The translations under genes and the position numbers were made by a program. From NCBI GenBank assembly GCA_017938645.1, contig JAGBBE010000181.1, positions 1-59,680 on the forward strand: a stretch of 59,680 bases of DNA, read 5' to 3'. Below are positions 11,450 to 57,667 of this stretch, piece by piece. Source of the stretch: Clostridia bacterium (GTDB lineage: Bacteria; Bacillota_A; Clostridia; Christensenellales; Aristaeellaceae). The notes under the pieces are model-generated. The model worked only from the letters and a program-made list of their open reading frames with translations, was not told the DNA's origin and ran no database searches. How positions within the stretch are numbered: position 1 is the stretch's first letter; the number at the start of each line of letters is the position of its first letter.

Positions 11450-11459
11450 GGTATGAACC

Positions 11460-21216: not shown

Positions 21217-21561
21217 TTATTGCCTATTATCTTCATAGGTTGGAAGTCCTTCCAATTCTTCCATCAGATGAGTGATAATGCCATTCCCGCCAAGGGCATG
21301 ATACTGGTCGTAGATATCCTGCATCACTTCTCTGTCGCGTATCGGATAATACCCTTGATGAATATAGATTTTGTACCCCTGATAAAATCGGTCTCTGAGC
21401 AGAGCCACCATAGCCAAGCGAATCGCCTGTTCGTCCTGTGAATCCTTTTTTATACGTTTGACTTGCCTGCGATACTACCAAGAGATGATCGCCACAATCA
21501 GTACGCAAATCTGCTGTACCCAGTATTTCTGCACTATATCAATGATCGCTTCCCAATTCAA
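21217..21561 (-). CDS. Holin-like membrane protein (one in-frame TAG)
   Basis: The start is TTG 21561 after GAGGGAGG, seven bases away. The 114-residue product has one N-terminal membrane helix (VQKYWVQQICVLIVAIISW, about 10-28), a basic stop-transfer segment, then a soluble helical tail ending GGNGIITHLMEELEGLPT. This architecture recurs in small holin-like proteins of Clostridia prophages. TAG is codon 29, directly after the membrane helix, and the frame continues to TAA. Last gene of the late operon. A second holin-like gene lies at 40,451, so their roles may be split. Confidence 0.65.
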
Positions 21562-21577
21562 AATTTTTCCTCCCTCT

Positions 21578-22162
21578 TTATACTTGGATCCACGTGCCTC
21601 CACTATTATAGTAGGGTGTACATTGAATCCAAATCCCATTGTTGCAATAGTACACCAGGCATTGTTTCCATACGCCTCCATCATTATAATATACAGTAGC
21701 CTCCAAGTATTCAATTACGATCTGCGGCTTTACGCTTGCACTATCTTCATCGCCATTGAACTCACTATAGGAATTAGATCCGCTGCCATGTCTTATATGC
21801 AGATACCACGTTCCTCCAAACCCCTGTATTGTACTGGCGTAGGATGTGAGAGAAATACTTTTGCTGCCCTTACCTTTGCTGACGGATTTGGTGAACGAAA
21901 AATCCAGCGCAGCGCTAAATCCAGAGGAAGTAGATCCGCCGAACAACAATGTGTGCGTATTATAACTATCAATACGCGTCAGGTATAATGTTATACTTTT
22001 TATAACCCATCTCTTCGGAATTGCAGCAAAGGTCTACCGGCCTTTGTATTTTGTGCCATCGCTGGAGCTCGATCCAGTCTTGCCCACCTTCAAATCTGTA
22101 GAGCTGCTGAACGATGAAGATCCCCATACACAGTTTGATGCATAGTATGTCTTGCTTGCCAT
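21578..22162 (-). CDS. Tail/receptor-binding protein with C-terminal aromatic repeats (one in-frame TAG)
   Basis: The start is ATG 22162 after AGGAGGATAT. Read through TAG at codon 43, the 194-residue product is Ser/Gly-rich and beta-structured. It ends with three tandem repeats of the type VYYNDGGVWKQC, VYYCNNGIWIQC, PYYNSGGTWIQV. Such aromatic repeats resemble short cell-wall or receptor binding motifs. The standard code would stop it at residue 42, before any recognisable domain. It lies at the tip-protein end of the tail module. Confidence 0.7.
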
Positions 22163-22177
22163 ATATCCTCCTGAAAC

Positions 22178-24205
22178 TTATGAAACTGGAACGAGGCAAA
22201 TTTGTCCATCCACACCCGTATCCGGCAATTTCTCAGCATAAAAAACGCCCATATTGTTGAGCGCAGTCTTTGCATCGCCTCCTCCAGTCCCTCCTTTTTC
22301 GATCGGTACAGGTGTAGACATTCCTGCATGAAAGATACGATAAGAATTGTAGTTTCCACTTGCCACGGTACGTAGCACCAATGCCTGATCCAAACCTGCC
22401 TGATATCCCGCGTTTCGGATTTCCAGCATTCGCCTGTTATCTCCTGTTGCATCCTGCCAAGATGCAAGGGAGGTTGCTCCCAAATACGATCCTTCCACTA
22501 TAGAGCGATTAACCGTGCCGTTGTAGCTCGGCGTAAGTAACAGTGACGGATACAATGACGTTTTCACCGTCAGATTTCCCGTCATAGTGTCGCCTGCTTT
22601 TCTAACTGCGCCGATATTTACACATGCTGAAGCGGGCGTTGAACCTCCTGTTCCGCCCTGACCCACTTCCTATGGATTCTCCAGCTTGAGTTTCCATCCC
22701 AGTGACACAGTTTCATCCTCACCGGCTGCCATTCCAAATCCAACTGCCTTGCCACCCTTTTTGATGTGCATGATATAGGCCGCAGACGAGATTTCACCCG
22801 CATAGGTTGATACGGTGCCCACTGTATCCGTCAGTGTAAGCGTCACAGAATATGTTGCATCCACCGCCAGATTTCCTGCCCCCTATATTACACCTGTACC
22901 GCTGGTCAATGCGGTGCTGGTGGAGTAGGTTCCTCCGATCTGAGAGAGCTTCGCTGTCGCAGTTACTTTGTTGCTGCCATTCAGAATAGAGCATCCGAAA
23001 CTGGCTTTTACATAGCCGTAGGTTCCTTCTGTATCGCTTCGTGCACCGGAGCTGTTGCATCGATACATGTTGATGGAAGAAAACGACGGTGCCGTATAGG
23101 CGTATACTGTAAAGCTCGCCGTTTTGGTTGCCGTGCGTCCACGGGAATCCGTAACTGTTGCTGTCATGGTAAATGTACCACTCTTGTTGATCGCCGCCGT
23201 CGTCATAGTGGATGATTTGACCGTACCAAGGTAGCTGTTGCTGATTGAGTATCCCGTAATCGTCGATCCATACGCTCCCGCGGCATTGTTAATCTTAACT
23301 CTCGCTTGAGTTTTGCCCTGCACATAGATTCCCCAGTCTGAAATTACTGAATTCGAATTGATTGGAGTGATTGTTACACTTCCAATGGTAGGAACTACGC
23401 TGGACGGTACCGTAATCGTAAATCCATACACCGTGCTGCCGACCAGCGATCCGCTGGCATTGTAGGTTTCCAGCGTTGCTGTCGCAGAACCTGACGTAGC
23501 AGACGGAATCGCATTGAGCCATGTCAGAGGAATTGTATACGATGTGGATGAAATGCCAGCGGCAACAGACTGCGTATATGAATATGCGCCAAACTTCCAA
23601 ATTACTTTGTGTGTATACTGGCTGTTGTAGGCAGTGATGTTTACTGTTGCTGCACTACCTGCAGCGACACTGGAAGCTGCCATCGAGCCATCGCTTTTAA
23701 GATACTGAAAAGTGAATTCCAATGTCATTGCAGTTACCGAAAGATAGTCGTAGCAGAATCCGCCGGAATGCGTCCCTCGCGTAGACGGCACATAGATAAT
23801 CAGTGTTTGGTTTCCCGATGAAAAATAGCTTTTCAGCGTATTATAGATGGTGCTGTTCGTGCTGGAATTGAATGTCAGCGTAACAGTTCTGTCGTAAGCA
23901 TTCGACACTGAAATTGCACCAATGGAGCTGCTTCGCATAGAAGCAATACTACCTGAAATAGCATTTTTTGCCGCTTTGTAGAATGTTAAATACTTAGTGC
24001 TGGCACCGCCTGCAGCACCAAAGGTAGCCTTCATCTTAATCTGGCTGATCTCTATGTTTGAGAAGTCATAATCACCAAGCCCCGAAAAGCGTATAGCACC
24101 CTCGTATCTCGTGGTTGAATATACGCCCTGTCTAGCCTTTCCAGATGACCATGAACTGGACGAGGCATATTTCTATTCACTGGCGCTCACTGTAAATGTT
24201 GCCAT
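22178..24205 (-). CDS. Tail fibre protein (three in-frame TAGs)
   Basis: The start is ATG 24205 with AAGGAGTGATAGGAT upstream. TAGs at codons 11, 441 and 512 are in one frame ending in TAA, giving 675 residues. The N-terminus is a beta domain like DUF859-type siphovirus tail proteins. The middle has repeated Ig-like units (YNSQYTHKVIWKFGAY; ITGYSISNSYLG). The C-terminus carries the fibre-type motif IEKGGTGGGDAKTALNNMGV. It probably forms the receptor-binding tip. Under the standard code only 10 residues would be made. Confidence 0.8.
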
Positions 24206-24218: not shown

Positions 24219-25277
24219 TTAGGTGCGCCACTTAAGACCAACGCCAGTGGCGGTTGTTACAATGTCGAGAAATCCGTTTTCCTCCGTACCGATTGATATC
24301 TGTTCCTGTGCTTCCAGTCTTTCAACGTACAGCTTATTGTCGGAAAAATATGCAAGCTCGCTACCAGCTTGAACAAAAGCCAAGCGCGTATTGGTCAGAC
24401 GCATTTTGACGTTGGATGAACTGCTGCCCATATCCAGATAAGGCGTGCCGTTATTGTCACCAAACTCAAAATAGGAAAACATCTGAGTGAGACTACTTTC
24501 TGCAGAGGTCAGGCGCGTAAACGTCAATGTCAGATCGCTATCCGTCTGTGCCAGTTCGCTTCGGATCAGTTCTATGTCCGCAAGAGCCTTCATGAATTCC
24601 TCTGCACTAGCGAACTGTTCAGATAGTCCCATAGATTCAACCAGCGCCCACACTCGGGTTTCCAGCGTAGAATCAAGACCATCAATACTGCCCAACAATT
24701 GTTCGATTTGGCTTGCGGTGTCCTCGGGCGCAGGCGACCATGTGGTCGGAATACAGCCTTCTTCCAGTTTACATTTCACATAGGTCACTGCATTTCCGTT
24801 CGTCTGGAATAGCGGCCCACAGAACAGATGCAACGACCAGTTACCATCTGTTTCAGGAACGATGAATCGAAATACCTGTTTCTTGTCTGAAACCGCAAGC
24901 ATTCCGGTAAGCGCATTTGAACCCGTATCCTGGTTGACAAGTGCCCACGCCACCTGCTTCGCTGATCCTGCATTCAGTCGAACCTGCTGAACTGAGAATG
25001 TGTAATCCTGTCCGGGCGTCAGTTCATCCACCGCAACCCAATACGTGTTGCCATCCGTATCCACAACAGCATGGCTTGCGCTACCCACAATGAGGTTGAC
25101 ACCGCCGACATCAACTTCATTGATCTGATCCCACGTCGCTCCATTATACCTATATAACTGCGGCGGCGATTGCGAAGTGTTCTACCACAGCATTCCCTCA
25201 ACAGGGGCAGCAGGAGCTGTCCCCTGTTGAATAGGGTCGTTGAGATCCACGATCGTTCGCTGTCCCTGTGCAATCAT
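24219..25277 (-). CDS. Tail structural protein (one in-frame TAG)
   Basis: The start is ATG 25277 after GAGGTGGAATAAG. TAG at codon 32 falls in EGMLW-x-NTSQSPPQLYRYNG, a motif type repeated in phage tail proteins, and the frame continues for 352 residues to TAA. The middle has a jelly-roll-like segment with WSPAPEDTASQIEQLLGSI, then a coiled coil, then a beta C-terminus. It sits between two large tail-tip genes. Confidence 0.75.
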
Positions 25278-25278
25278 C

Positions 25279-27102
25279 TTATTCCACCTCGCAGACGAAT
25301 ACCGTCTTGCTATCCACATCGTCACCGTCTACGAAGATCACCTTTCCGGTAGCAAAAGCAGCCTCACCATCCAGAGGATTACCGTCTTTATCTCGTCGGT
25401 ACCAAGTGTAGGCTTTAGTGTGACTGTAGGCGGCATCATCGGTAACATCCACCCACGTGGAACCAGAATAACGCATCTATGCTGTGATCGGCGTAGTTTT
25501 GGTCACCTTGTAATAAAAATCTCCGGTCACTGGACCAGAAGGTGCAGAGGCGGAATACGTTGTACTCTTGAGCGTATCAACTTCAACACCATTCTGCCAG
25601 AGACGAGCGATCAGATAGGATTCACCCACCCCGTTTTTGAAAATCTCACCTGCGGTAGAGTCGATCTCAAGTGCATAATTGTCAGTCTTGTCAGTAAGAG
25701 TGATCACATCTTGATAACTCTTGCCATCGTAGGTCATGGTGCAGCGATAGCTTGCCATGCTAACAACATCAGAACCGGTTACAGAAAGCGTGTTGCCAGT
25801 TTGGCCGGGGATTGTCGTCCAGCTGCCGCTGGCATACTTCGCCCAAACGTAGGTCGCGCCGCTGGTAATCGGACTTGAGCCTACGTAGGCAGCAACCTGA
25901 ATAGGGAGATTGCCTTCGCCATTGATGAATACCGTACCGTTTGGCGCATAGACAGAGAATACCACGGCATTCTTGCCGCTTGAGCCTGTCGCGCCAGTGT
26001 TGACCTTGCTCCATCGAATTGTCAACGTCGTGTTGACGGGAGAAGTTACAGGCACGGACAGCGTACCCTGCTGTTGACCACTACCGCCCAGGGTAGCGTT
26101 AGCCGCGATAGCAATCGTAATGGGAATCTCGCTGCCTGTTGCATTGCCCTTCGTCGCGGTCATTCCGGTTACCGCACCGGTCACTGCGCCCACGACAGGA
26201 GTAACTTTAGTCGTTCCGTTGTAGGCAACGACATTGCAGGTTACCGAAGTTGCAGATACTTGACCTGCGGCATTCCCCGCAAAAGTCACATTCTCATTAG
26301 TTAGAAAAACAACGGAAGCATTTTTACCAGCCTCGCCTGTACTTCCGTCAGCACCATCCGCGACCTTGTAGATACTGGTCATATCACCGATATTGTCGTC
26401 GCTAGTGATAATACGAATCGTAGCAGCATCCCCAACCCAGATAGAATGTGTGGGCTTGACCACAAGCGTCGTACCAGTAATCGTAGAGTTATCGCTGGTC
26501 GTAGGATAGTCCGTCCAGTTCCCGGAGCTGTTCTTGTACTGCCACTTTCCCATGGTTACATTCTGAAGATTCGCAGTCAGCGAGATTTGCGTCGGCGTAG
26601 AAGTTGTACTACCTGCCGAATACTTGAACACCTGCTCACCGCTGATCCACGCGCTTTTGGCATTTTCACCTGTGGTGACCAGGGCAAACGAGATGTCCGC
26701 CGTTGCATTGATCGGCAGACCGTTATCCGGGTCCGTATAGGTTACATACGCAATGTAGCTCAGAAGCCCGCTTGTGATGGCTGAGAGCTTGTTGGCAGAT
26801 ACGGTCAGGACATTACCGTTCACGCTCTCTCCAGTAGTCAGCGCTGCCTCACTAGCGGAGCCTTCCTTGCGCTTCCATGTAATACTCAGCGCAGAGTTCG
26901 TCAGTGAGATCGCTGTCTGATTGGCATAGATCACAGGCGTAATAACCAGTTTACCCGCCGTACTCGTCCAATCCGGTACATATGTACCAGCGTTTACGTC
27001 GTTAATCTGCGTTCGGGGCTGATTGCTGCCCAGATGAACGGACTACGATTTACCGTCCGTCAGGTCGATAATTGTCTTACTTCCCGTTGCGATGATTGCC
27101 AT
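25279..27102 (-). CDS. Ig-like/collagen-like tail protein (two in-frame TAGs)
   Basis: The start is ATG 27102 after AAGGAAGGTGGCAAT. TAGs at codons 20 (after IIDLTDGKS) and 542 lie in one frame giving 607 residues to TAA. Sequence after the first TAG (SVHLGSNQPRTQIND) continues a typical tail N-terminus. Several Ig-like repeats follow, with short collagen-like GADGSTGEAGK and GATGSSGK linkers. This design suits a receptor-binding or adhesive baseplate protein. Confidence 0.75.
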
Positions 27103-27116
27103 ATTGCCACCTTCCT

Positions 27117-29597
27117 TTACTCGTCCATGATGTCACATGAATATGTCGCGCTAAACAACACATCCGCCGTCGTCAGCAAAATTTCCTTTACCCCTGTGTG
27201 CGCCGCAGCCCACACCCTGTCTGCCGTGTCGTCGTTGCTCTGCCTTGTCCACGCAAACCTGCTGGCATCAATGGTTTCAGTCACTTCTGTATTGCCCTTC
27301 CATACACGCGCCTTTAGAGTTGTCTTCGGCACATATTGAGAAAGCACGTCGCCACTCTGCGACTGGATCTCAACGCGATAGCCAACCACGTTGACCACCG
27401 CGCTTTCCACCGTCATTTTGATGGAGGTGTTGCTGGAAAGATCCAGCGACTGCCCAACGTCCGCTGCCAGATGGTTGGCGGTGATCGATCCGGCCTGTAT
27501 GCGATCGGCAGACAGAAATCCAGTTACGATGAGATCTGCGGTGAATCCTTCGCCGGTACCAAATGTGCGCCAGTCCCATTTTCCATCGTCCGTCTTGCTG
27601 CTGGCAATCATAAAACCCTCGCCGCACAGCTGCATGGCGCTGGTTCCGTTTACGGATTCAAGGATCAGGTTGCCGTTTTCATCGGTGTACCAGTTGGAGA
27701 TGCTGGAGGACAGCCTCGTCTTCAGCACATCGATCATACCTTCCAATCGCTGTGCCGGAATGGAGCCGTCGCCGGAGATCGCTTTGGAACGGTCGTACAG
27801 AGCCTTCTTCTGGTTCAGCACTTCTGCGATGCCAGTGATGCGGGCAATCACGCCATCCAGAGAGAGTCCTCCGATACTGCTCAGGTCATTGGAGATCGTG
27901 ATCGCATCCTTGTGCGGAGTTTCCGGATATTCCACCTACTTGGTCACATAGGCCTGATCGTTGAGTGAAAGCGCCTCATCCCACAGGCGTACAGCCATGT
28001 TCGGCTGAAACACCTCCTGCTCATAGCCGCTGATGCCGGAGAGGTTCAAAACAGTCACCGTATAGGTAACGCTGGGCTTTGAGAGCTTTTCCATGATCTC
28101 CTGACCTTCAAGGAACAGAAGCTCCTCCTGACCGGGCGCATAGCTGGTGTTACTCCAGTAGCCGTCCCGCAGCAGGTCGCCCATGGCTTCGGCGAACCGC
28201 TGCTCGATCGCCGCCTGCCCGCTCATGGAGGACTCGTACTGCGTATTGAGCACATCCCGTTCAATCGCTTTATCAACCGCTTCCCTCATGAGCGCATACA
28301 GACCTGCACTTTCGGTTGTTCCTTCATAAATCTCCTGAATGCCGGATTCCAGCAGGGCAATCTGTTCCCGGATTGTCTCCTGCTTAGCCTGATCGGTCTC
28401 CTCTGCAAGCTGCTTGTTCCAGCTTTCGATGCTCTGCTACTTGGCCTCAATGGCAACTTCCTTGCCGCCGATCAGACCGGATGCTTTCGTAATCCACTTG
28501 ATCACATACTCTGTATTCTCAGGGAAGGCCAGATCGAACAGCGTGACATGCGTTCCATCTGCCAGCAGAACCGTCAGTTCATCGCCGGCAGCAAGCTCTG
28601 ACTGTTCCTCAGAAGCATCGCCGCCAAGAATGTGACCTACGACCTCGCCGCCATTCATGCTATAGAGGATATAGTCCACTGATCCCCACAGCTCATTAAG
28701 CCTGCCATCCAGCGTAATCAAATCGGTGGCCGCCGAAGAACTGTCCGCCTTCGCCGCGGCTATATCCCGCAGGTATTCCTGTAAGGCCTGCTCATGGGCT
28801 TCAGTAAACACACCCAGCTCGCGGAAGTAATCAAAGTTGAGCAGGAAAGAAAGGCCGGTGGGATTGATGTCGTCAATGCCCACATATCCTCCGTCCGCGT
28901 ACTCGCCCTCAACGTACAGGCGGGTAACGATATCCGCAGCGTCCTCTTTTCGTTCCACGCCGGTCAGGTTTTTGGCAAAGTTCAGTTCCAGCATGTCTTC
29001 ATGCCGGTTGAGACTATAGATATTGACAGTGCGCGTCTCGCCGTCATATACCGGGTAGGCCGAAAACAGCTTGCAGATGTCGGAGATCAGAAGGTATGCG
29101 CCGCGCCGGGTATCGCAGGAGATGGATCGAACCTTCTCGGTAACGCCATCATTTTCAAAGAAGTTCTCACAGAAGCCCAACTGCCAGCCGGTTCCCGATA
29201 GCGTTTGCTCCAGGAGGTATTGTGCCGTGCCAATACCGTTGGTATCGTCGAAGGTCAGGTACAGATTTTTCTTGTTCTACAGCGAACATACATGCTCACA
29301 GGTCACCGTTGCGCTCACTGTCATGCTCTTGTGTACACGCTTGGGCGCATTGAGCAGGAACCAGTCGGGCTTGCCGTCGCGCTCCAGCCGCACAAGGTAT
29401 CCGCTGCGAATGAAATCCCAGCGGAAGTTGCGTTTCCCATTCACTGTCTGGGGAAGGGAGAAGGTCAGTTCCTTCCAGCCGCTGATCTCTGTGGTGAGGT
29501 GGAGATCAAATGCCTGTCCCTCGGGCTTCAGTTCAGAGTCGTACTACTCGCACAGCTTTACACGATTCATGTCGTGAATGGATACCCTCCATAGCAT
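27117..29597 (-). CDS. Tail-associated protein, Tal/minor structural family (four in-frame TAGs)
   Basis: The start is ATG 29597 after GGAGGTGGGATCA. TAGs at codons 18, 107, 387 and 554 share one frame of 826 residues ending in TAA. The N-terminal 350 residues match the phage minor structural (Gp18/Tal) family: ISGWKELTFSLPQ, a KNLYLTFDDTNGIGT segment and EKVRSISCDTRRGAYLLISD. A coiled coil follows, then a C-terminal beta part with FLSADRIQAGSITANHLAAD. It follows Dit in gene order, as Tal proteins do. Confidence 0.85.
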
Positions 29598-29618
29598 TGA
29601 TCCCACCTCCATTCTTGA

Positions 29619-30671
29619 TTATCGGCCGCGAAGCACGCACTCTACCTCAAAGCGCGTCAGCCCTTCACCGCCTGTTATCTCAATCTCGTTCATCGTCACA
29701 ACCGGCGTTTCTGTCGCGCCGGTGCCATTGACAGCCTCTGAAAGAATCGCCGTGTTCGCGTCCGTTACCTGCCGGACGCACTTCCAGCCATCCAGATACA
29801 GATACTGACCTTTCATGCGCGGAACGAATGCGCCGTCCGATGCCACCGTATTACTGCCCGCCGTATGAGAAACCGCAATCGATCTCACAAATGGCAGGCA
29901 CGGCGCAAGCGTAATGTATCCCTCGTCATGGAACGGAAATGCCAGCTCCGTTTCATCCCCGAGCGCAATCCGCGTCTGACACTTCTCGCTGTCCAGTTCA
30001 AGACATGCTCCTTCCAGCAGGCTATCTGCTTTCAGATTCACCACTTTGCATCTTTGTCCGGTTGTCAGATTGCGGATCAGTAGTCCATCTTCACCGACAT
30101 CGCCAGTGAGACGAATGATGGAGTGCCCAACCTCTGTACCCGGATTATATAATAGGAAGAAAGAGCTGCCTGCAGTAGGAGTTTCCGGCGTCATCTTCAC
30201 TGGAAGCAATCCCGTTTCAGTAAGCTCAGCCTCGGTGAGTATATTGTCCAGTTCTGACTTAATAAGCCGCCCGAAAGGATCATAACAGGTAAAAGTCGCT
30301 GTAAAGGTGCCGCTGTATCGCGTGCCCTCGGGCAGATCGCTGCTGTACAGCGAAATCTGAATGCGCTTGGTCGGATGCACACGATAGGCGATGTACGCTC
30401 GGTCGTCGAAGATCAGTTCTCCGCTGTTCCTGCGATCCAGCCATTTATAGATGCCATCCAGCGTTTCTTTCGGAATGTCTTCAAAATAGCAATCCTATTC
30501 GAAGGTTTTGGAGTTGACACGCGCGCCGATATAGTATCCGCCGTCTCTGCCTTCCGATGTCAACTCTTCGACGTCGTATTCTTCCATGACATCACCGCGG
30601 GCTTTTGCATCAGGATGATAATAGCAGCCTAATGTACTGCTGTGAATGCCCGCAAATCTGAATCCGTCCAT
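29619..30671 (-). CDS. Distal tail protein (Dit family; one in-frame TAG)
   Basis: The start is ATG 30671 after GGAAAGGAGAAAC. TAG is codon 59 in KTFE-x-DCYFEDI, followed by IYKWLDRRNSGELIFDDRAY, the signature region of Dit proteins. The frame gives 350 residues ending in TAA. Dit forms the ring linking tail tube and tip. In relatives the residue at the TAG position is usually hydrophobic (from memory of the family), which bears on what TAG encodes here. Confidence 0.85.
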
Positions 30672-30702: not shown

Positions 30703-33700
30703 TCATCCGATCCGGATGCCGCCCACGCTCATGCCGCGCGTTACCTTTTCCATGATGTGCTCGCTGACGCGCTCGGCCATCTCCTCGTAATCCTGCTCGC
30801 TCTCAAGCTTCTGTACCTGAACCGTGATGCTGTCGATGTGATACGACGGCGTCTGCGCTTCCGGCAGATGCGGTGTCACAACAGAAGTCGGAGCTTTCAG
30901 CGTACGGATTTCGTGGAGCGATCTGATCAGGTCCTCAAACAGCTCCGTCTGATAAGGGGACAGAATGCGCTCCGGTCGCTGGGTCGTACCATCTACCCAC
31001 GCGAGGCCGGTGCCTGTGGCGAGACCGCCTTCGAGATACTTTTTGACGTACTTTGTCGTGCCTGTCTTCCAGTACAGTGTGCGCCCGCCATCGATCAGCT
31101 TGGCGTCGCTCCGTTTGTACCAATAGCTGGAATTCGGATCCTTTACATAAGCAGCGCCGTCATAGGTAACGCTCTGTGCTGAGCTCTTCGAAGCCTCGGC
31201 ATAGCCGGTGCCGCTGGCCACAAACTGCTTGGTCGCAGTCGTTTTTGTGCCTGATCCGCTGCTCTTGCTGGAAGAACCGCTAGAACTGCTGCTTTTTCCT
31301 GAGGAAGTGGATGCATACTTGGTGTTGTTGATAGAGCTGGATACGGATTCGTGAGCCTTTTTCAATTCCTCAAGTTTCTTTTTCCATTCGTCCACATAGG
31401 CTTCTGCTTGCAGCTTTCCCGCTTCCTTGTAGTCGGCGCTGTTCTGCTTCAGAAATTCTATAATAGCCTCATCACCTTGCTCGATGATACTTTCGACCTC
31501 ATCCCAGTAGGTTTTGGCATTACCACGCATGTCATCCAGCATCTCTTGCCAGCCAAGGCGCATTTCCTCTCGGGTGGCGTCTGTGGCTGTCTGATATTCC
31601 TCGTGATTCGCTTCCAGCCATGCGAGGATTTCTTCATCGGATTTAGTCATCAGCTCCTGCAATTCCTCGATCAGCTTGCGGGGATTGGACAGCAGTTCCT
31701 CATAGTAGTTTTCCACATACTCGATGTATTCGTCTATGCTGTCAATCTGGGCCTCAATGGACTTCTTCTGGGCATCTATCTCTTCTTCTGCCAGCTCCCA
31801 AGCCAATTCCTCGCGCAGTTCGGCAATCTCTTCTCGGAGTGCCAGTTCTTCTTTCTTTCGAGTCGGGTCGGCAGAGATGCGTGCAAGCTGCGCTTCCTTT
31901 TCGGCCAACTCCGCTGCGCGGTTGTTCTGATCATTCAGTTTTTTCCGGGCTTCAAGCTGTTCATCCAGCATGCTGAGTTCTTCACTTAGCGTTTCACGCT
32001 TCAACTCTGCCAACTCAATCAGCTCGTCGCGTTCCTTTTCGTAGCGCCGGGTCAGCACATTGATCTACTCGTTTTCAAGATCGATTCGCCCCTCCAGCAT
32101 GCGCCTGTTAAGCTCCTCGCGATCCATAATGGCATCGTGGATCAATTCACGCAGGTCGATCTCCATCTCGCGGACGGTATCATGCCACTCTTCGATCTGA
32201 TTCTGCAAATCCTCCAGATCGGTCATGTTCTGAAGCAGTTCCTCAGAATACTGCTGATGCGCTTCCTGAAGCGCTTCCAGATCCACGGCTGCCTGCTTGT
32301 ATTTCTTCGAGCCTTCCTTATACTTCGCAAGCTCCGCCTGCTTCTTTTCAATTTGCACTTCCAGCGTAGTTACATATCCGCGCAAGGTATCTGCATTGTC
32401 AGACACAAGATCCTTTTCTTTTTCAAGATACAGAATAACGCCCTGGATTTCTCCGCGCGCCTCATGGTATCCCTGTGCCAGCTGCGCCATTTTGCGGTAA
32501 TGGCTTTCAAACCCCTGTTCCTCATCCATCTTATCGAGCATCTTCTGGATGCTCTTAGATACTTCAGTACTGGAGCTTCCTCCCCCGCCGCCTCCACCTC
32601 CGCCAGATCCGCCTCCCCTGCCACCTCGTCCAGATGCCCCGCCGCTACTGCTGCCCTGCCGGAGCGGATTGCTGCCCGTGTAGCGGAGTACAGTCTGATC
32701 AGTATTCAGCCTTGTCGTTGTCCATATGCCGGATACAGGATCCCACATTGCGCCCTCCTGCGGAAGCGTAATGGTTTCCGTCGTCCACTGGCCGGTTGCA
32801 ATCAGTGCCGCCACGGTATCCGCCGCAAGATTTTGCACGCTGATCAGTCCGCTGGTCAATGCGCTGAAGTCTGCGACAGAAGTACCTGTGATCGTAATAA
32901 ACGCCGCTTCATTCAAGCGATTGAAAGCGTCTTCGCCCTCAGCCAGAGCTGCAGAGATCATCGGGCCAACCATATCCCAATTTGCAAGAAGCACATTAGG
33001 GTCGATTCCACCCAAACAAGAGGCAAGATTCTCAATTTCGTCAGTTGTGACGTTCAAACCGCTGGCCATCTTCTTGCTTGCTTTCTGATACTCAACATTT
33101 GCGTCAGCTGCTTTTTCAGCTTCAGCATAATAATCCTCAAAAGCCTCAGCGGCAGATACGGTTCCATCCTTCAGGCCCTCGATCGCAGACGCAGTATTCT
33201 TGAAATAACGGGAAGAAGCATTGCGCTGTGCGCTGGCAAGCTCTTTTCCAAGCTTGCCGATCTGCCTGTCAGCATCCTTCGCGACATCCGCCATCTCCGC
33301 CTCAGTGTTTTCAAGATCGCCCATAGTCTCAGATAATTCACCAGCCGCCCGGTTGGCATCGTCCAATGCTATAACAAGAGAGGGATAGGTTTCTGCGATG
33401 GACTGCCGAAGCGCGCTATCAAAGCTGTTCCAGACTTCCATAGCTGCAGCAACGCCCTCTGTACCGCCGTCACCAAATGCTTCAATCAGCATCCCGATCT
33501 GATCGCCATAGCTACTGGTTTCTGCAAAGTTCGCATCTCGCTCTTCTCTCAGTGCAGTCGCCATGTCGCTTAGGCTGATTGTCTGCGCCGCATTCTGCAT
33601 GGCGTACAGTTCTTCAACTATTTTGGCAACGTCTCCGCCACAGGTCATCGCCAGATTGGATATGTCGCCAAACATCCCGATCATGCCTTCAAGAATACCG

Positions 33701-40464: not shown

Positions 40465-40789
40465 CCACTGCTTCCTCCAGTTCGATGCTGGTCTCCCAGC
40501 TTTCAATCAGGTTCATTTCGCGCACGGCAGCCTCAATGGCGGGCAAATCGATGGCAAGGCCGCGGTTTTCCAGTTCTTCCCGGACGTACTGCAGTTTTGC
40601 ACTGCCCTTGCCTGCACCGTAAATCTGTTCCGCCGCGTACACCAGCACGCGGGTTGTTGCCAGCAGGTAGTCCTGCTGTTCCTTGGTGGTCTTGCTCTTG
40701 ATCCATGGAATAATCTTCACCGTGATGATGGTTGCCAGCAGACCAATCTATGCCTCCAGCACCGGAGTTAGGTTAATCATATTCATCAT
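40451..40789 (-). CDS. LL-H family phage holin (one in-frame TAG)
   Basis: The start is ATG 40789 (a second ATG follows) after ACGGAGGTACG. TAG is codon 14, at the beginning of the membrane helix (LEA-x-IGLLATIITVKIIPW), with KSKTTKEQ after it. The soluble part (RVLVYAAEQIYGAGKGSAKL) is the hallmark of the LL-H holin family. 112 residues to TAA. It follows the endolysin gene and would permeabilise the membrane for lysis. A stop at residue 13 under the standard code would prevent holin synthesis. Confidence 0.82.
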
Positions 40790-40799
40790 CGTACCTCCG

Positions 40800-45942: not shown

Positions 45943-45994
45943 TCATTTCACCTCCAGCGGCGGAAGGAGTGTCCCTCCGCCGCACTATCGTTCA

Positions 45995-46996
45995 TCATGC
46001 AGTGGTATCGGTGTACACGCTCATGGTCGGGGTCTTGCCGATCACGATGCCTGCGCCGAACCACTGATCCAGACGAACCTCATAGGCAAGGTCGTCAATG
46101 TTGGTGGATTCGGTGGACTGCACATCACCCTCATACAGCACCTTCAGCGGGCGCATGTCGGCGGTTGCGCCGGAGGGCAGAATGTACAGGCGCTTGGTGT
46201 CGATCACTGGAGTCACATTGTCGCCCAGATAGGGATTGACAAGGTTGACCACCTTTGCGCCGTAGTAGGTGCCGATCAAACCGGTACGCATTACTTCGTC
46301 GATCACGCTCTGAGAATACTGCTGCGTTGCGGCAGCTGCGGTAAAGCCGGTCTGCTCAGCGAGCTGGGAGATCATCGCAATATCGCCCAGCAGCGACACT
46401 GCACCGGTGCGCATCCAGTGCTGAATCATGGGATTCAGAACGGACTTGACAATGCCTGCGCCAGCACCGTAGAAAGGAGATGCCCAGTTTTCCACCGCGC
46501 TGTGAAGAACGGACTGGACGTATTCTACCTGCTTGAGGGCCATCTCGTTGGACGCATCGCGAATCAGGTCAGCCATCTGAACGCGTCCGGTGCGCAGCTC
46601 GTACAGGTTGATCACCGGACGTGCGGACACGGCGATGGTGTCCAGCGTGACCTGCTTATGCGCAATCTTGCTGCGCGCAGGGGTGCCGGCCTTGGCCTGG
46701 ATGAAGGCACGGATGCCCTCCATCTTCGTCTGGAATGCGGCCTTTTCGCCATAATTGACTCTCTTCACGTCAGCCACATGGTTGAGCCAGTCGGTCTGCG
46801 GACGGGTCATTTCGTTGACCGTGTAGCCGACCAGCTGCGCGATCATGTACTTGTTGTGGGGCGTGGGCTCGGAAGCCTATTCTGCAATCAGTTTTGCAGC
46901 GCGGTCAGCCTGATCGCCGTCAACGCGTTCGCCGCGCGCCTGAGCGGTGATCAGCTGGACCAGCTTGCTGTCCTTACGGATTTCAATCTGAGGCAT
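45995..46996 (-). CDS. Major capsid protein (one in-frame TAG)
   Basis: The start is ATG 46996 after AGGAGAGATGAACC. TAG at codon 40 follows RAAKLIAE and precedes ASEPTPHNKYMIAQLV; the 333-residue frame ends in TGA. The body has the long spine helix and strands expected for an HK97-fold shell protein, with KQVTLDTIAVSARPVINLYE and a terminal VRLDQWFGAGIVIG. The standard code would stop the capsid at residue 39. Confidence 0.82.
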
Positions 46997-48582: not shown

Positions 48583-50121
48583 TTACAGACTTCCCTCGGG
48601 ATTGGACGGCTTCGGCTGCTTGCCGGTCGCTGCTTTCAAGGGATCGGAGCTGCGCTCGCTGTCATCCATCTCCGGCCTGCCGACTTTTCCTGTTTCTTCA
48701 TCTGCATTGTCCTTCTTCACAGAAGCCCTCATATCGACAGGATCCTGTTTCTTTCGTTCCTCTTCCTGCGCCATATCATAGCCATGGGTCTGCAGCATCG
48801 TCTTCGTTGATACTACGCCGGATTCCCACAGTTTGAAGCAGGTCTCCTGAAATTTTTCATTGCCGGCCAGATCAACGGGCGGGAACGTAAAACGGGGAAC
48901 GTTGTCAGGGCGGCTGTGCGTTACGCCGCCTCGCCCATGTCCGTTGAGCCTGAGATTGATCTTGTTCATCAGCTCACAGAAATTATCCCGCGCCTGCTTG
49001 ATGCGGATTGCCGCAGTCTGCATGGAAACCTGAGCAGAAGCAAAGTTCGAACCATCCTCTGCACGACCGGATACAATGATCCCGGAGATGCCGCCTGCGG
49101 ACAAGATTTCTGCATTGACATCTCGGTATTTGTCGTCGCTGAACATCTCGTTCAGATCCGGCTGAACCACCTCGGCTTTGCAGAGATGATTGGTCGTCGC
49201 CAGCGCACTTCCTGTCATTGCACGCTTGAACAGCGCATTCACCGCATTGAGCTGAGTAATGTCCGGCATGATGTCGGATTTGCTGTCGCCATAGGTGACG
49301 TGGACAAAACTGTGCGCACCCAGATTCAGCAGTGCGGATTCGTACTGGGCAATCAATGCTTTTCTGCGAAAAGCCGCCAGACAGGTCGCTGTCATCGGAA
49401 TTGCATATCTCGTCCAGTCTTCCTTGATATCCTGCAGAACAAAGGTATTCTCCGGATTCTATTGAACCCAGTCGCTGCCCTTATTAAGTGCATCGGCAAC
49501 CTCGGGCGGAAAGCCTTCCAGACGAACCTGCAGGTCTTCATCCTCAAGAAAATCCTTCTGCGCTTTGACGCCCTGCTGCTTCAGATCGTCTCTGACAGAC
49601 TTGCAGTTGAATTCCAGCACCGGCTCGTTTCCGATCATAACGTTAGCGATTCGGATCAGATGTACCGGCAGCGTGATGATGCTGCCATCCTCCTGCAGAT
49701 AGACGTAGACATTGGCGTATTTGTAATATTGCAGAAAGATGCTCCGCATCCTGTCCGCCAGTCCGATGCGATCATAATATTCTTCATATTTCTGCTTGGT
49801 CGCTTCATTCGCTCCAATCAGCCGCCAATCCGAAACGCTGAACGGAACGTATACGCCCTTGATGATGCCGCGGTAAATCGGATCTGCGTCCACGTAGTAA
49901 TCGCTCAGTTCATAGAGACTGTTGATATTTTTCTGCTTGTCCCTCAGAATGCTGTCATAATCATAGCTGGCAAGATCGCCGCTGTAGGTGATTGACTTGT
50001 CGTTGTAGGTCATGGTGGAAGCATCCTCGTTCTTTGCACCCACCGCGATCTCAGCCTTCTTTGTCTGCGCGGGCTCATCCCGCGGCTGCGGGGTTTTCCT
50101 CTATCTGTCAAACCATCCCAT
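48583..50121 (-). CDS. Portal protein (two in-frame TAGs)
   Basis: The start is ATG 50121 after GGAGGAAATTGA. TAGs are codons 7 and 221; 512 residues to TAA. The stem/wing pattern of phage portals is visible: YYVDADPIYRGIIKGVYVPF, then KEDWTRYAIPMTATCLAAF after the second TAG, and SGGISGIIVSGR-like turns. The C-terminus is charged and disordered. The portal forms the dodecameric DNA gate at one capsid vertex. Under the standard code six residues would be made. Confidence 0.85.
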
Positions 50122-53393: not shown

Positions 53394-54545
53394 TTACAGG
53401 GAAATAGGATAGATACAGCGACGACCATAGCCGGATTCAAGAATCATTCCCAATGCACCAGGTTTACCTCCATAACCCAAACGCTGTGCGTATTCGTCCA
53501 TACCGCAGATACTCGGAACGCGTATGATCACGGAATTACCCTGATCCGTATAGCCTGACACACATTCCTGTTCGCGATGCTTATGACCACAAATCAAGTA
53601 ATCAATAGCCTCTCCATATAGCAGCATCGTCTGTTTTGCAGCGTTCTGCAAAGACCGAACATCCGTTCCGTGTGTCAGAAGTATGCTATATCCCTGTATG
53701 CTCAGATGTTTCTGCTGCTCGGTGACGTTATCCACAATAACATTTGCATTATCCTTCAGACGTTCGTTCAGAAACCAGAATATCACTTTCTCAAGATTCT
53801 CGCCAGGGAAGTCTCCTCGCTTACTGTTCAAGCTGCGGGTTTCCGTATGGTTTCCATCCACGCCGCAAACAGATACTGCGGCATATCTGGAAAGCTCATT
53901 GATCCACTGCGCCATATATTCCGAAAACCGCATGCAGCTTTCAACCACGCCCCAACGAAGCTTCATGAGCTGGCTGGCACGCAGCATACCATCCAGACTA
54001 TCGCCACAGATCAGCAGCTGCACATCACTGATCTTCTCTTTCTCCAGAATGTCACGCACCTGCACCAGCAATTCTCCCATGCGGGCATAGAAGATCTCCG
54101 GGCTATAGCTGTTCAGGATCTCGTTACGAAGTCCTCTTACCGTCCATTCGGCGCCAAAGTGGCAGTCTGCAATGCAAAGCACGAGAGTCCGCTTTCCAAC
54201 CCCTCTTCCTAAGGTGGGCTTTACAATTTTCATAGGCTGCATCTCGCGTACCGCACGGACTACAGAATCCCTCAGCGCCTCACTGCGGGATTTCGCCCGA
54301 TAGGTTTCATTGATCTCATTTCTAAGATCGCGCAGCTGTTGGACATTGTCCAGCTCACTCGTTTCTTCAGGATACTAAGCAAGCATACCCATATCGGCCG
54401 CAAGTTTAATCCCTGCACCCATTTTTCTCAGCTGATCCGGGTGAATTCCGCATTCGTACTGCTCAGCAATTTCAGACCAATCAAGGTCCGACATACCAGA
54501 AACTTTGCTGTACATTTCACGCACCTATTCGCGCTTATCGTTCAT
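53394..54545 (-). CDS. Calcineurin-like metallophosphoesterase (two in-frame TAGs)
   Basis: The start is ATG 54545 after GAGAGGTGATAAG. TAGs are codons 7 and 57; 383 residues to TAA. The N-terminal 100 residues are helical and may bind DNA (DWSEIAEQYECGIHPDQLRK). The catalytic part has all motifs: IADCHFG (about 125-131), GDSLDG, GNHTE, LLTHGTD and GHKHREQE. Such phage enzymes act on nucleic acids or nucleotides; substrate unknown. It is upstream of the packaging genes. Confidence 0.85.
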
Positions 54546-54549
54546 CTTA

Positions 54550-55278
54550 TCACCTCTCTACAATCGACACCATGTCATCGGCGATCAAATACCCATCCTG
54601 ATCTGCAAAATGCCGGTCCCCGTTAGGTACGACAATAACGATGACCCGATCCATATCGTACTGATCTCCATATCTTGTTTTCTTCGGTGCATACTTTCCC
54701 ATTTTTTCATTCAGACGGTAGTACCTATCCTCAAATACAAATACCCCGTCAACATCCACGCTGCAGCCATGCAAGCTACATCCCTGAAACATCCTTTGAA
54801 TACCGTTCAAGCGATCAAAGCGGGTGGTACCCCTATGTTTGCTCTCATTCCAGCGATAACTTCCCAAACGCCCATCCAACCGTTCTATCAGCTGGCGATA
54901 CATTTGTTTGTCTTCTCTGGACAGAGCTTCAAGGCATACCGTCCCGCTTTCCGCCATCGCCGCGAGCCCCGCAGGACAATCAGAAAAACCGATTTCTCTG
55001 CTACCTGCAACCATTTCTTTGTAGCTCGTCAGAGTATTCCTCTCGTCCAGAGGAACGTCGCGCAGGAGGAGTGTACCACAACGGTCTAGTAACCGCTTGA
55101 CTCTGATTTCAGGCGACAGCATGTTTCCAGAATTATCATTCAACCAATTTTTTAGACAATAACCCGTCCACGGTTTCAGAATCATTTGATCAATAAGATC
55201 TGCCTTGTTCTGCTCTTCATTATACAGGAGCGTAAACTTCACTCCGTTTGGCTAGGTAATTCCATATCTCGACGCCAT
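54550..55278 (-). CDS. Unknown phage protein (one in-frame TAG)
   Basis: The start is ATG 55278 after GAGGAGTAGGGCG. TAG at codon 9 follows ASRYGIT and precedes PNGVKFTLLY; 242 residues to TGA. Several cysteines (GCSLHGCSVDVDG) and a basic middle are visible. The stop lies four bases before the metallophosphoesterase start. No family recognised. Confidence 0.6.
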
Positions 55279-55343
55279 CGCCCTACTCCTCCCTCTTTTT
55301 TACTTCAACGCTCAGGCAAACTTTCGCGCATCCGCATAGGGAT

Positions 55344-55366
55344 GGGACAATCAAAGAAACTGTCCC
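55344..55366. other. Small hairpin between prophage genes
   Basis: GGGACA (55344-55349) pairs with TGTCCC (55361-55366) across 11 bases in the 117-base gap between two regulators. No U-tract follows on the minus strand, so a processing or attenuation role is only possible. Confidence 0.3.
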
Positions 55367-55395
55367 TTCCCCCATATTCATTACTTTCAGATTCG

Positions 55396-55905
55396 TCAAA
55401 GAATTCGCGCGTTTTCATCTATAATCTGCGCAATTGGATCAGGAATACACTCACAATGAGTCTCTTTCCCCTATTTTATACTTTCACGATTCTCCCTTTT
55501 TTCGCGCATTTTATTCCCTACACTTTTTTCAGCGTATGCTTTCATCCACTGCCTGTCATTTTGCCGGACAATACGCGAAACCATATTTCTAAATTTCCGC
55601 TCTATTCCTGCAAAATCGCAATCGTCCAGCTCTGCAATATCGCGCAATGAAAAGCCATCCATCTACCTCTTGAGCTAATTCATCTGCTCAAAGGTAAAGG
55701 CGCAAGCTCCAATGAGCCTGTCAAGGTCAATGTACGCACAGAGAATGGCTTCGCCAACGCTCAATCCTCCACCAGACTCTAGGCCGCTTCCATCGATCAT
55801 ACGCGCTTGATAAGCTGAATCCTATTTACTTCGCTCCTTAATCTACTTCGCTACCACACGTTCCTCGCTCTAAGGGAGATATACCCATTCTGATTCATTT
55901 CTCAT
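55396..55905 (-). CDS. HTH-type phage regulator, most TAG-rich gene (six in-frame TAGs)
   Basis: The start is ATG 55905 after GAGAGGAGTGTTGAT. TAGs at codons 12, 21, 28, 77, 81 and 145 share one frame of 169 residues that ends in TGA. Between them the sequence is coherent: SAYQARMIDGSGLESGGGLS, then VGEAILCAYIDLDRLIGACA, then LKR-x-MDGFSLRDIAELDD, which reads like a helix-turn-helix. It is probably a late-gene activator or small terminase-like protein. With six TAGs in 170 codons, its synthesis would be the most sensitive to suppressor level. Confidence 0.65.
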
Positions 55906-55906
55906 A

Positions 55907-57667
55907 TCAACACTCCTCTCCATTTTCCATTGACAAGATCCATTCACATATAGCACAGGCTTGAGCATGCTTTGAGTTTCTGGCTAGCTTCTTCACATCC
56001 TCTGCAGGTATAAAATTCTTGCAGACAATCTGGTGGGAAGGCTGACCGTTTTTCATCTGGCATCGTTGCGTCCTGACATGCCACAGCTCCTTCTGCTTGC
56101 ACAGACTTCCGATTCCACTGGGATTGGCGAACCCCATGATCTTTGCACAATCGCACGCTGGATACAATATGCGGCCATCAATTTTATATGCAGTAATGTC
56201 CCCATATACCGCATTGTGCAGTGTATGCGCAGTACCCACCATGTCTATGCGTCGGCCACTTTCAATCGCAGAATGCTCCCCCTTCGCCGATTTCAGGTAT
56301 TCTATGTATTCATCCCACTCTTCCATGGATAGCAATTCTTGCAATGAGTGTTGTGGAACCTACTCATGCAGCACCCGATAAAAACACCTGGCAAAATCGC
56401 CCATCAGCTCACGCATCGTAACTCTGGTCTGTGGTTCATCTCTTTCAGAATCCACGCACGGCACAGAATAGCTTCTGCTATCGGCATTGAATCCACCTTC
56501 CGGTAGCTACATACGTTTCCCTTTTTCGGCACAGATCGCATTGTTGTCCACCAGTTTCTTTATCAGCTTGCATGCCGTGTTCTGGCTCACGCCTATAACC
56601 TTTCCCGCATCCTTAGCAGAAATCTTTCTCCGCCCCATCTTGCTGCGCACCATAAGTAAAAAGAGCATACGCCGTCTGTTCTTTGCTGTTTCCCGAAGAA
56701 CAACTTCGATGTGCGCGCTATTTATGGTCACAGATTCGGAATTATTTTGGCCGCGAACTAAGAAACTATCTGAATATGCCCACTTAATCAAATCCTCCAT
56801 GTCCCTTGCAACATCTTCTGGCATTGAACGGACGAAAGAGTGATTCTGCTGTTCATACCATTGACGCAGAATTTGCTGACATTCCTGTTTGCTACTGCCC
56901 TGTTGCCTCTGGAACACGACGATATTCCGCATCATGTTGTGCCGTGTACCTTCTTCCCGCAGTTCTGTTCCGAGATTGCGCGTAGCAGGTGAGGATCTGC
57001 ATGCATCTGAGATACCGCGATTTCTCTTTCCTCCTCCATTTCTGCGAAGCATCTGCTGCGGAATCAGTTTATTCGCAACTACCGCGTCCATCTGCTTTAT
57101 CTGCAAAATAAAACCATTGCTTTCTATCTTCTGAAAGGTTCGATTATCAACATACCAGCAGACATTCCCTGTTTTGGCATGTATGGATAGCGGAAGTTTT
57201 ATCGCCGAGGTATTCGTGGGCCGGAATTCAACTTTATGCGGATCAAGTTTGTGAGCTGCGACAACATGTTCATAGAGCATTCTCAAGCGGTCAGTGCGGA
57301 TGATTGCATTGAAATACATTTCAACATGATATCCTTTTCCTCCGCTGTAAGAGGTATATATCATATCTTCCTGGAACCCAAGCCGAACCAGTTCATCAAT
57401 AATACTTCTCACCGTTTCATGATTTCCGTCATCCACATCAAAACAGATAAATTTACTCCCAACTTCACCCGCAAATATTCCGACAGCATATCTGTGCTCC
57501 AAATGATTTCTGAGTACGCTATCTGACAATTTGCAATATCCTTCTCCCTTCTTTTTAGGCGTTATGATTCTTCCATTTGGCAGACACAGTATGTATTTCT
57601 GCCGATATGTCACATACAGCTCTATCAACCGCTGAAGAATACAATCCGTGCTTCGCTCTTTCTCCAT
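55907..57667 (-). CDS. AEP-type primase, with TAG read-through into a Bro-N-like domain
   Basis: The start used is ATG 57667. Residues about 70-200 resemble an archaeo-eukaryotic primase: CFDVDDG (75-81, DxD), YTSYSGGKGYHVEMYF, and a histidine in LSIHAKTG. A winged HTH is near 340-386. TAG at codon 387 (56507-56509) would end a 386-residue primase; TAG at 436 follows. The same frame continues to TGA at 55907, adding a segment (YPACDCAKIMGFANPSGIGS) resembling phage antirepressor Bro-N domains. No good ribosome binding site precedes the second part. An upstream in-frame ATG at 57820 with another TAG (57743-57745) could extend the N-terminus. Confidence 0.7.

What the first reader, a model, noticed from the sequence alone, without database searches (positions are those of the whole stretch)
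21217..57667. Prophage reads TAG as a sense codon: 50 in-frame TAGs in 25 reading frames
Terminase, portal, capsid, tape measure, Dit, Tal, endolysin, holin and others are each broken into segments lying in exactly the same frame, separated only by TAG. The sequence on both sides of each break belongs to one recognisable protein. TAA and TGA never interrupt, and all prophage genes end in TAA or TGA (none in TAG among about 33 genes). Stop-codon recoding in phages is known (TAG to Gln and TGA to Trp types); finding it in what appears to be an integrated prophage next to standard-code genes is unusual. Counts were made by hand.
Basis: partly seen in the sequence, partly recalled or inferred. Interest (0 to 1): 0.95.

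Follow-up and report, generated by a model that had tools for sequence, protein, structure and literature searches.

The report
Prophage recoding TAG stop as leucine
A bacterial virus, probably sitting in the chromosome of a Clostridia bacterium, carries 51 TAG "stop" codons inside its genes, and where relatives can be compared they mostly have leucine there, so it likely reads TAG as leucine with a leucine-type tRNA that two of its relatives carry; recoded phages described so far read TAG mainly as glutamine.

Summary
In detail: 51 in-frame TAGs in 24 of 30 leftward phage ORFs (21,217-57,820); 17 of the 30 end in TGA, 13 in TAA. It is recoding, not decay.

The familiar reading (TAG = glutamine, code 15) is not supported. 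In 13 related phage lineages, non-TAG residues at these columns are leucine in 112 of 143 cases and glutamine in 4; TAG's substitution profile matches that of the leucine codons. Two sister phages with few or no sense TAGs show leucine in 24 of 42 and glutamine in 0.

Two relatives whose contigs reach further (72 and 80 kb) carry a tRNA with a CUA anticodon, a long variable arm and leucine-type features, between DNA polymerase III alpha and ThyX. The window ends before that region, so this phage's own copy is inferred.

Both relatives have a 22-48 kb block (anti-restriction protein, reverse transcriptase) nearly free of TAG (1 per 268 and 1 per 342 Leu codons, against 49/872 and 63/680 elsewhere). 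I infer a phage-encoded code switch: standard-code early genes, then tRNA-Leu(CUA), then TAG-containing replication and late genes.

Recoded prophages in standard-code hosts are known; my searches listed no phage with UAG = leucine. New variant of a known kind.

The parts
4574..16753 (+). Flanking operon of likely host chromosome (MoxR-like ATPase, DUF58/VWA proteins, ABC transporter), standard code
   Evidence: Colinear with contig 105 of genome G011 from 4,676 to 16,756; protein 14,108-16,750 is 68% identical there. Product names recalled from sequence, not from a family search.
18889..21106 (.). Small genes that read under the standard code between the flanking operon and the late operon; three have weak homologues in the flank of phage contig G006, so they may be phage accessory genes
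   Evidence: tblastn 26-30% identity to G006 8.9-10.9 kb; no Pfam hit for the three
21217..21714 (-). Last gene of the late operon (phrog_4105 family), 1 TAG
21578..22162 (-). ORF of unknown function, 1 TAG; the only left-end TAG without any relative to compare
22178..24205 (-). Tail protein (phrog_372), 3 TAG
   Evidence: all three TAGs face Leu in the G008 prophage
24219..29612 (-). Three tail / tail fibre-like proteins, 7 TAG
29619..30671 (-). Distal tail protein Dit (phrog_33, PF05709), 1 TAG
30703..38826 (-). Tape measure protein, 2,707 aa, 4 TAG
   Evidence: phrog_4211 E 1.5e-38
40451..40816 (-). Holin (PF09682, phrog_6918), 1 TAG
40800..41609 (-). Endolysin with peptidoglycan-binding domain, 2 TAG (both before the recognised domain)
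45995..46996 (-). phrog_4088 family protein (by position possibly the major capsid protein), 1 TAG
   Evidence: capsid role inferred from gene order only
48583..50121 (-). Portal protein (phrog_2739), 2 TAG
   Evidence: the two TAG columns are Leu or TAG in 17 of 23 relative residues
50807..52459 (-). Terminase large subunit, 4 TAG (codons 3, 71, 218, 438)
   Evidence: codon alignment; 39 full-length homologues give Leu 32/39 and 35/39 at two of the columns
53394..54578 (-). Exonuclease (phrog_284, metallophosphoesterase), 3 TAG
55396..55968 (-). Unknown protein, 6 TAG (highest density)
55907..57820 (-). Archaeo-eukaryotic primase-like protein with anti-repressor-like C-terminus, up to 3 TAG (start uncertain: 57,820 or 57,667)
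   Evidence: PF22548 and phrog_2899
58640..59390 (+). Conserved non-coding region, candidate large structured RNA, between the leftward late genes and the rightward TAG-poor block
   Evidence: no Rfam match above threshold
59412..59680 (+). Start of a rightward gene of the TAG-poor block (MSKTNTATATP...), cut by the window edge
   Evidence: reads in frame in window, G003 and G005

Best explanation
This is part of a large temperate phage, likely integrated in a Clostridia chromosome, whose structural, lysis and replication-associated genes hold in-frame TAG codons at sites where relatives mostly encode leucine, and it likely translates TAG as leucine with a phage-encoded tRNA-Leu(CUA). SHOWN: TAG is sense, TAA and TGA remain the stops; the aligned residue is mostly leucine; two relatives encode a CUA-anticodon tRNA with leucine-type features between DNA polymerase III alpha and thyX; in those relatives a 22-48 kb block is almost TAG-free while the replication, nucleotide-metabolism and late genes are TAG-rich; none of 396 sampled genomes of the likely host's order matches the strict tRNA-Leu(CUA) pattern. 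INFERRED: this phage has the same tRNA gene beyond the window's right edge; the host leucyl-tRNA synthetase charges it; the TAG-poor block is read first by the unmodified host, the replication operon with the tRNA gene follows, and from then on TAG codons are read as leucine, so that lytic genes stay cut short in the silent prophage.
For: (1) Residues at the window's 51 TAG columns in 13 relative lineages: L 103 of 132 non-TAG observations (M5 I5 T5 V4 Q4, six others 1 each), plus 88 shared TAG; one vote per site gives L at 28 of 35 sites with data. With the whole G008 prophage contig added: L 112 of 143, Q 4; L at 34 of 40 sites with data. (2) Reverse: the relatives' TAGs face window residues L 99, I 10, M 3, Q 3, V 2, six others 1 each, plus 88 TAG. 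(3) Method control: by one vote per site TAG gives Leu 0.80; CTG 0.85, CTC 0.78, TTG 0.77, CTA 0.79, CTT 0.84, TTA 0.60 (10 sites); CAG gives Gln 0.64; the six nearest codons by profile are the six Leu codons. (4) Sister phages G678 and G680: L 24 of 42, Q 0. (5) 39 full-length terminase homologues among the 120 listed of 908: column 217 L 32 (Q 2), column 437 L 35, column 70 V 21 / I 14 / L 4. (6) BLOSUM log-likelihood: Leu +35.3 against Gln -19.7 (35 sites), Leu +19.1 against Gln -16.2 (27 sites of one sister). (7) At TAGs of the long relatives: G003 L 73, Q 2 of 127 non-TAG residues; G005 L 158, Q 3 of 215. (8) DNA polymerase III alpha TAG 579 of G003 faces the Leu of KMDFLG in all three alignments shown. 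(9) CUA tRNAs in G003 and G005: long variable arm, A73, D-arm 17/19 identical to a host tRNA-Leu (my reading). (10) Strict tRNA pattern: only those two contigs in viral contigs, 0 of 396 genomes. (11) Two-code partition: Fisher p 4.6e-5 (G003) and 7.1e-10 (G005); ArdC and a reverse transcriptase lie in the block.
Against: No tRNA gene lies in the window; the tRNA is seen in only 2 contigs, many other relatives being fragments. Overall tRNA similarity hardly separates Leu from Ser (68.4 against 67.4% for G003; 68.8 against 66.7% for G005). No peptide or charging data exist. 11 of 51 TAG sites have no non-TAG relative residue to judge by, even with the G008 contig (16 without it). In the distant solved structures shown, TAG 789 of polymerase III alpha faces V or A, and the ThyX TAGs 24, 73 and 191 face G or P, I, and C, none of them Leu. 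A simple 'late genes only' switch is wrong: replication and nucleotide genes also hold TAG, and each block has one TAG. I chose the block limits after seeing the TAG map, so the p-values are optimistic. No release factor matching PF00472 was found in 9 phage records, so competition with host RF1 is unexplained. The chromosomal junction was not located. That this host uses TAG as stop is not shown: 0 of 14 ORFs in the window's host part end in TAG; 10 of 76 in related genomes do (crude ORF calls).
Confidence: 0.87

Rival explanations
1. TAG is read as leucine, but by a host tRNA (a host suppressor or near-cognate decoding), not by a phage tRNA.
For: No tRNA in the window; some recoded phages are reported without suppressor tRNA genes (passages of PMC10607447 and PMC13037316).
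Against: The tRNA-Leu(CUA) is encoded by the two relatives whose contigs reach the thyX region; 0 of 396 sampled genomes of the order match the strict pattern; 10 of 76 crude ORFs in related genomes end in TAG, which a constant host suppressor would read through (but 0 of 14 in the window's own host part).
Confidence: 0.07
2. TAG is read as glutamine (genetic code 15), as in crAss-like and Lak phages.
For: The commonest recoding described in phages (passages of PMC9523058, section 9 of PMC10879173).
Against: Gln is 4 of 143, 0 of 42, 2 of 127 and 3 of 215 of the aligned non-TAG residues; log-likelihood strongly negative; the CUA tRNAs have a long variable arm, which bacterial tRNA-Gln lacks (recalled knowledge).
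Confidence: 0.01
3. A decaying prophage with accumulated nonsense mutations.
For: Interrupted frames under the standard code.
Against: Only TAG among 51 (P about 3e-15) and no TAA/TGA inside a gene frame found by outside proteins; the same TAG positions are shared with relatives 88 times; TAA/TGA are 3 of 44,760 aligned codons in relatives; terminase 97% identical to a relative on another contig.
Confidence: 0.01
4. TAG is read as leucine throughout, with no switch: the TAG-poor block is recently acquired or horizontally exchanged DNA that has not had time to gain TAG.
For: The block contains varied, accessory-type genes; many block genes are conserved less well than structural genes.
Against: Block genes such as the reverse transcriptase (71%), GP88 (67%) and ArdC (70%) are about as similar between G003 and G005 as the TAG-holding DNA polymerase (72%), yet hold no TAG.
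Confidence: 0.25

Closest known systems
Code-15 (TAG to Gln) recoded phages: crAss-like, Lak, phAss-1
   Same: TAG sense codon inside terminase, portal, tape measure and other genes; CUA suppressor tRNA on phage genomes; TAA/TGA as stops
   Different: The residue is leucine, not glutamine; the tRNA of relatives is leucine-like with a long variable arm; relative G003 carries an integrase and the likely host is a Clostridia bacterium; no release factor was found
Alternatively coded prophages in standard-code hosts (Borges et al. 2022, not held, known here through passages of PMC10746230; pig-gut set in PMC12454387)
   Same: An integrated element with its own reading of a stop codon beside a standard-code chromosome
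   Different: No TAG-to-Leu case is mentioned in the passages I saw
UAG to Leu nuclear code of uncultivated phyllopharyngean ciliates (passages of PMC11687900), filed there under NCBI table 16
   Same: UAG read as leucine by a CUA suppressor tRNA resembling tRNA-Leu
   Different: Eukaryotic nuclear genomes with a permanent code; here a phage code inside a bacterium
SPbeta-like large Bacillota phages
   Same: Terminase is their distant homologue (about 24-29% identity); large genome
   Different: All terminase matches were under 60% identity; recoding in them was not examined

Membership tests
TAG-recoded phages (general) | Coding density rises clearly when TAG is sense | tested here: met
   64% to 90% of the minus strand 21,217-57,820 in ORFs of 150 aa or more; TGA as sense also raises it (88%) but on both strands
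TAG-recoded phages (general) | TAG not used as stop | tested here: met
   30 ORFs end TGA 17, TAA 13 (ORFs defined by these stops); relatives' proteins read across the TAGs
TAG-recoded phages (general) | CUA-decoding tRNA encoded by the phage | tested here: inconclusive
   None in the window; present in relatives G003 and G005; the corresponding region lies beyond the window edge
Genetic code 15 (TAG = Gln) | TAG sites align with glutamine in relatives | tested here: not met
   Gln 4 of 143, 0 of 42
NCBI table 16-like reading (TAG = Leu) | TAG sites align with leucine in relatives | tested here: met
   Leu 112 of 143; profile equal to that of Leu codons
NCBI table 16-like reading (TAG = Leu) | Leucine found by mass spectrometry at UAG | not testable with these tools
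   No proteome data
Temperate phage / prophage | Integrase and an attachment site | tested here: inconclusive
   Relative G003 has a tyrosine integrase (PF00589) next to tRNA-Lys; no integrase was recognised among the window's phage ORFs scanned (one weak phrog_7685 'integrase' match is the endolysin's peptidoglycan-binding part) and the junction was not found
Temperate phage / prophage | Joined to host chromosome | tested here: inconclusive
   Flanking operon syntenic with genome G011, assuming the window's assembly is right; homologous phage contig binned in Clostridia MAG G008; exact junction not seen
SPbeta-like phages | Shared genome-wide gene content | not tested
   Only the terminase was compared

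The most novel reading that the evidence does not exclude
A hidden clade of temperate Clostridia phages carries a switchable genetic code not described before in phages or bacteria: UAG = leucine, turned on in mid-infection by a phage tRNA-Leu(CUA), with host-readable immediate-early genes (anti-restriction, reverse transcriptase) kept free of TAG and the replication, virion and lysis genes locked behind the new code while the phage is a silent prophage. In public protein collections the clade shows up as truncated fragments, such as the 383-residue terminase pieces that run from one TAG site to the next.
Probability: 0.6. Interest if true: 0.88.

Novelty: new variant of a known kind. Interest (0 to 1): 0.8.

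Why it matters
Phage stop-codon recoding is described mainly as TAG to Gln or TGA to Trp, and the surveys I saw passages of score TAG phages with code 15. A TAG to Leu clade means that such predicted proteins are wrong at every TAG, and suggests that the amino acid is set by whichever tRNA the phage recruited. The related genomes span an apparent series (G680: TAG still a stop in 3 of 32 conserved genes and no CUA tRNA; G678: no TAG stop in 45, a CUA-type tRNA and 9 in-frame TAG in 16,037 codons; G003/G005: full use), which makes the order of events in a codon reassignment open to study. The sharp TAG-poor block gives a direct test of the idea that recoding times gene expression.

Tried and rejected
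Rejected: glutamine, decay and pyrrolysine (ARAGORN's label tRNA-Pyl only reports the CUA anticodon; relatives show Leu at the sites). Rejected: 'late genes only' recoding, since DNA polymerase III alpha, primase-helicase, ThyX and ribonucleotide reductase of relatives also hold TAG. Led nowhere: finding the left junction; a 39-bp match to tRNA-Lys at 71-109 lies on the far side of the syntenic host operon and may be a remnant of another element. Search of 200 family genomes with the protein 17,695-18,663 gave 5 matches of 29-38% identity. phmmer against solved structures supported Leu at one TAG of polymerase III alpha and not at another, nor at the three of ThyX. Release-factor search was negative in 9 of 9 phage records. 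Whether G678's 77-nt CUA tRNA is functional, and what it carries, was not resolved (its TAG sites face I4 V4 L2 M2 and five others once each, of 17). Ten paper searches listed no paper titled or abstracted as UAG to leucine in a phage; six of the ten listings were cut (for example 20 of 208, 15 of 324), and subscription papers, including Borges 2022, are not held.
Full report
What is there. The window holds about 21 kb of mostly host-like sequence followed by a leftward phage late operon (21,217-57,820) and then a non-coding stretch and a rightward gene that also belong to the phage: 58,191-59,680 matches phage contig G003 at 87% DNA identity. The phage therefore runs off the right edge; by comparison with G003 some 52 kb of early region, including integrase and tRNA gene, would lie beyond it. 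The flanking operon at 4.6-16.8 kb is colinear with a contig of genome G011, which the tool places in the same family as Clostridia MAG G008; G008 itself holds a homologous phage contig. I could not place the junction; three genes at 19.2-21.1 kb, readable under the standard code, have weak homologues beside the late genes of G006 and may be phage accessory genes.

Is TAG really sense? 51 in-frame TAGs lie in 24 of 30 ORFs, which end in TGA (17) or TAA (13). PHROGs matches run across TAGs in terminase, portal, Dit, tape measure, holin, exonuclease and a tail protein; the endolysin match does not span its two TAGs. ORF coverage of the coding strand rises from 64% to 90%; TGA as sense also raises it, to 88%, but on both strands. 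Because ORFs were defined by TAA/TGA, I tested the absence of those stops from outside: proteins of five relatives aligned to the window meet 29-38 TAG each, and 0, 5, 1, 4 and 0 TAA/TGA, none of the ten inside a leftward gene in its frame by my arithmetic. In 44,760 aligned codons of relatives there are 211 TAG, 2 TAA and 1 TGA. Random mutation would give 51 of 51 TAG with probability about 3e-15.

Which amino acid? The first sign was the terminase: of 15 columns with a TAG in any of 13 sequences, 13 have mainly Leu codons in the others; the two exceptions (451, 462) have TAG in one sequence each. Over all 30 ORFs and 13 lineages (five contigs 99.4% or more identical to G003 were merged with it), with TAG masked as X in the query, Leu is 103 of 132 non-TAG residues and Gln 4; with the whole G008 contig instead of its first part, Leu is 112 of 143 and Gln 4, and Leu leads at 34 of 40 sites with data, 11 sites remaining without. 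With one vote per site TAG gives 80% Leu, within the 77-85% of five of the six Leu codons (TTA 60%, 10 sites), and its six nearest codons are the six Leu codons. Two sister phages with few or no sense TAGs, 27-66% identical per aligned piece, give Leu 24 and Gln 0 of 42. Among 39 full-length terminase homologues two columns are Leu in 32 and 35, a third is V/I/L with 4 Leu (the 120 listed of 908 hits were used). In the longer relatives, including early genes, Leu is 73 of 127 (G003) and 158 of 215 (G005) non-TAG residues. Distant solved structures are mixed: one polymerase III alpha TAG faces the Leu of KMDFLG, another V or A; the three ThyX TAGs face G/P, I and C.

The decoder. The window has no tRNA. 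G003 (72,042 bp) and G005 (80,003 bp) each have a CUA-anticodon tRNA of 87 and 85 nt, 74 of 87 aligned positions identical to each other. They have a long variable arm, which in bacteria only Leu, Ser and Tyr tRNAs have (recalled), A73, and D-arms matching 17 of 19 bases of a host tRNA-Leu against clearly different Ser and Tyr D-arms (my reading). Whole-sequence identity separates Leu from Ser only weakly. In both genomes the gene lies between DNA polymerase III alpha and thyX on the same strand, with a 14-kb insertion in G003. A strict pattern finds it only in these two of the viral contigs and in 0 of 396 genomes of the host's order, so a host source is unlikely.

Two codes in one genome. 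Of the conserved ORFs of G003, 35 outside the block 30.9-52.6 kb hold 49 TAG against 872 Leu codons; 17 inside hold 1 against 268 (p 4.6e-5). In G005, 30 outside 15-63 kb hold 63 against 680; 22 inside hold 1 against 342 (p 7.1e-10). Limits were set after seeing the map. Eleven of the 17 G003 block proteins were scanned: they include an ArdC-type anti-restriction protein, GP88, a reverse transcriptase and a second tyrosine recombinase. In the window the block would begin at about 59.4 kb. I infer that the block is read by the unmodified host, that the replication operon then supplies the tRNA, and that TAG genes follow. Since replication genes hold TAG too, this is not a pure late-gene switch. 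The same logic predicts that leaky transcription in the prophage gives only truncated lytic proteins; [quoted passage not shown]

Evolution. G680 (111 kb) uses TAG as stop in 3 of 32 conserved genes and has no CUA tRNA; G678 (112 kb) uses it in 0 of 45, has a 77-nt CUA-type tRNA and 9 TAG in 16,037 codons, some in doubtful ORFs. This looks like a series from standard to full recoding but rests on few genomes. Of 120 listed terminase clusters 71 are 383-residue pieces, all aligning from query residue 55 to 435 or 436, that is between two TAG sites of the clade, so the clade is probably common and stored as fragments.

Literature (what I saw). Section 9 of PMC10879173: 180 suppressor tRNAs of gut phages, isotypes Gln 69.4%, Trp 19.4%, Ile 10.0%, Tyr 1.1%, no Leu. 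Passages of PMC9523058 (Gln shown by proteomics), PMC10607447 (phAss-1, Gln), PMC13037316 (jumbo phages), PMC12454387 (38 of 10,742 pig prophages recoded), PMC10746230 (recoded prophages in standard-code hosts known), PMC11687900 (UAG to Leu in ciliates, table 16), PMC8629427 (Codetta). Borges 2022 is not held. Ten searches, six with cut listings, listed no phage with UAG = Leu.

Verdict. Observation confirmed, interpretation improved: a TAG to Leu temperate phage. Sequence evidence for leucine is strong; the tRNA in this very phage, its charging and the timed switch are inferred.

Noticed in passing
window 58,640-59,390 (+); G003 (L025 12,455-13,260 -); G005 (L032 15,590-16,330 +): Conserved non-coding stretch of about 750 nt, candidate large structured RNA: fold z-score -4.06 (20 shuffles); in three sequences 46 of 210 consensus pairs show changes on both sides, shuffled mean 16.5, 0 of 500 shuffles as high (the structure was derived from the same alignment). 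No Rfam match above threshold, none in the phage collection by blastn; an exact 19-mer occurs in 4 viral contigs, three of them G003-like and one G005.
   Followed up: partly
window 1,038-1,621 (-) and L052 (G008 contig 230, 25,588-26,227): A toxin-antitoxin-like pair (Phd-type antitoxin by NCBIfam; RelE-like partner recalled) left of the host operon is 75% identical to one lying between two tail genes of the homologous prophage in G008.
   Followed up: no
window 60-115 (-): Sequence matching the 3' half of tRNA-Lys (39 bp, 87%), possibly an old attachment-site remnant; G003's integrase lies next to an intact tRNA-Lys.
   Followed up: partly
window 3,100-4,402 (-) and G005 31.9-34.2 kb: Sigma factor and DUF4367 protein of the window's left part have homologues (29-36%) inside the TAG-poor block of phage contig G005.
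   Followed up: no
G003 45,663-46,958 (-) and G005 39,697-40,935 (+): Reverse transcriptase (PF00078; below-cutoff matches to group II, Drt3a and retron models) conserved at 71% in the TAG-poor block, 3-6 kb from the candidate RNA.
   Followed up: no
G003 4,318-7,251 (-): Anaerobic ribonucleotide reductase (NRDD) apparently interrupted by an intein with LAGLIDADG domain.
   Followed up: no
G678 13,607-13,683 (+): A 77-nt CUA-anticodon tRNA in a sister phage with almost no in-frame TAG and no TAG stops among 45 conserved genes, possibly incipient recoding.
   Followed up: partly
window 55,907-57,820 (-): Primase-like domain (AEP-TOTE) apparently fused to an anti-repressor-like C-terminal part.
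   Followed up: no
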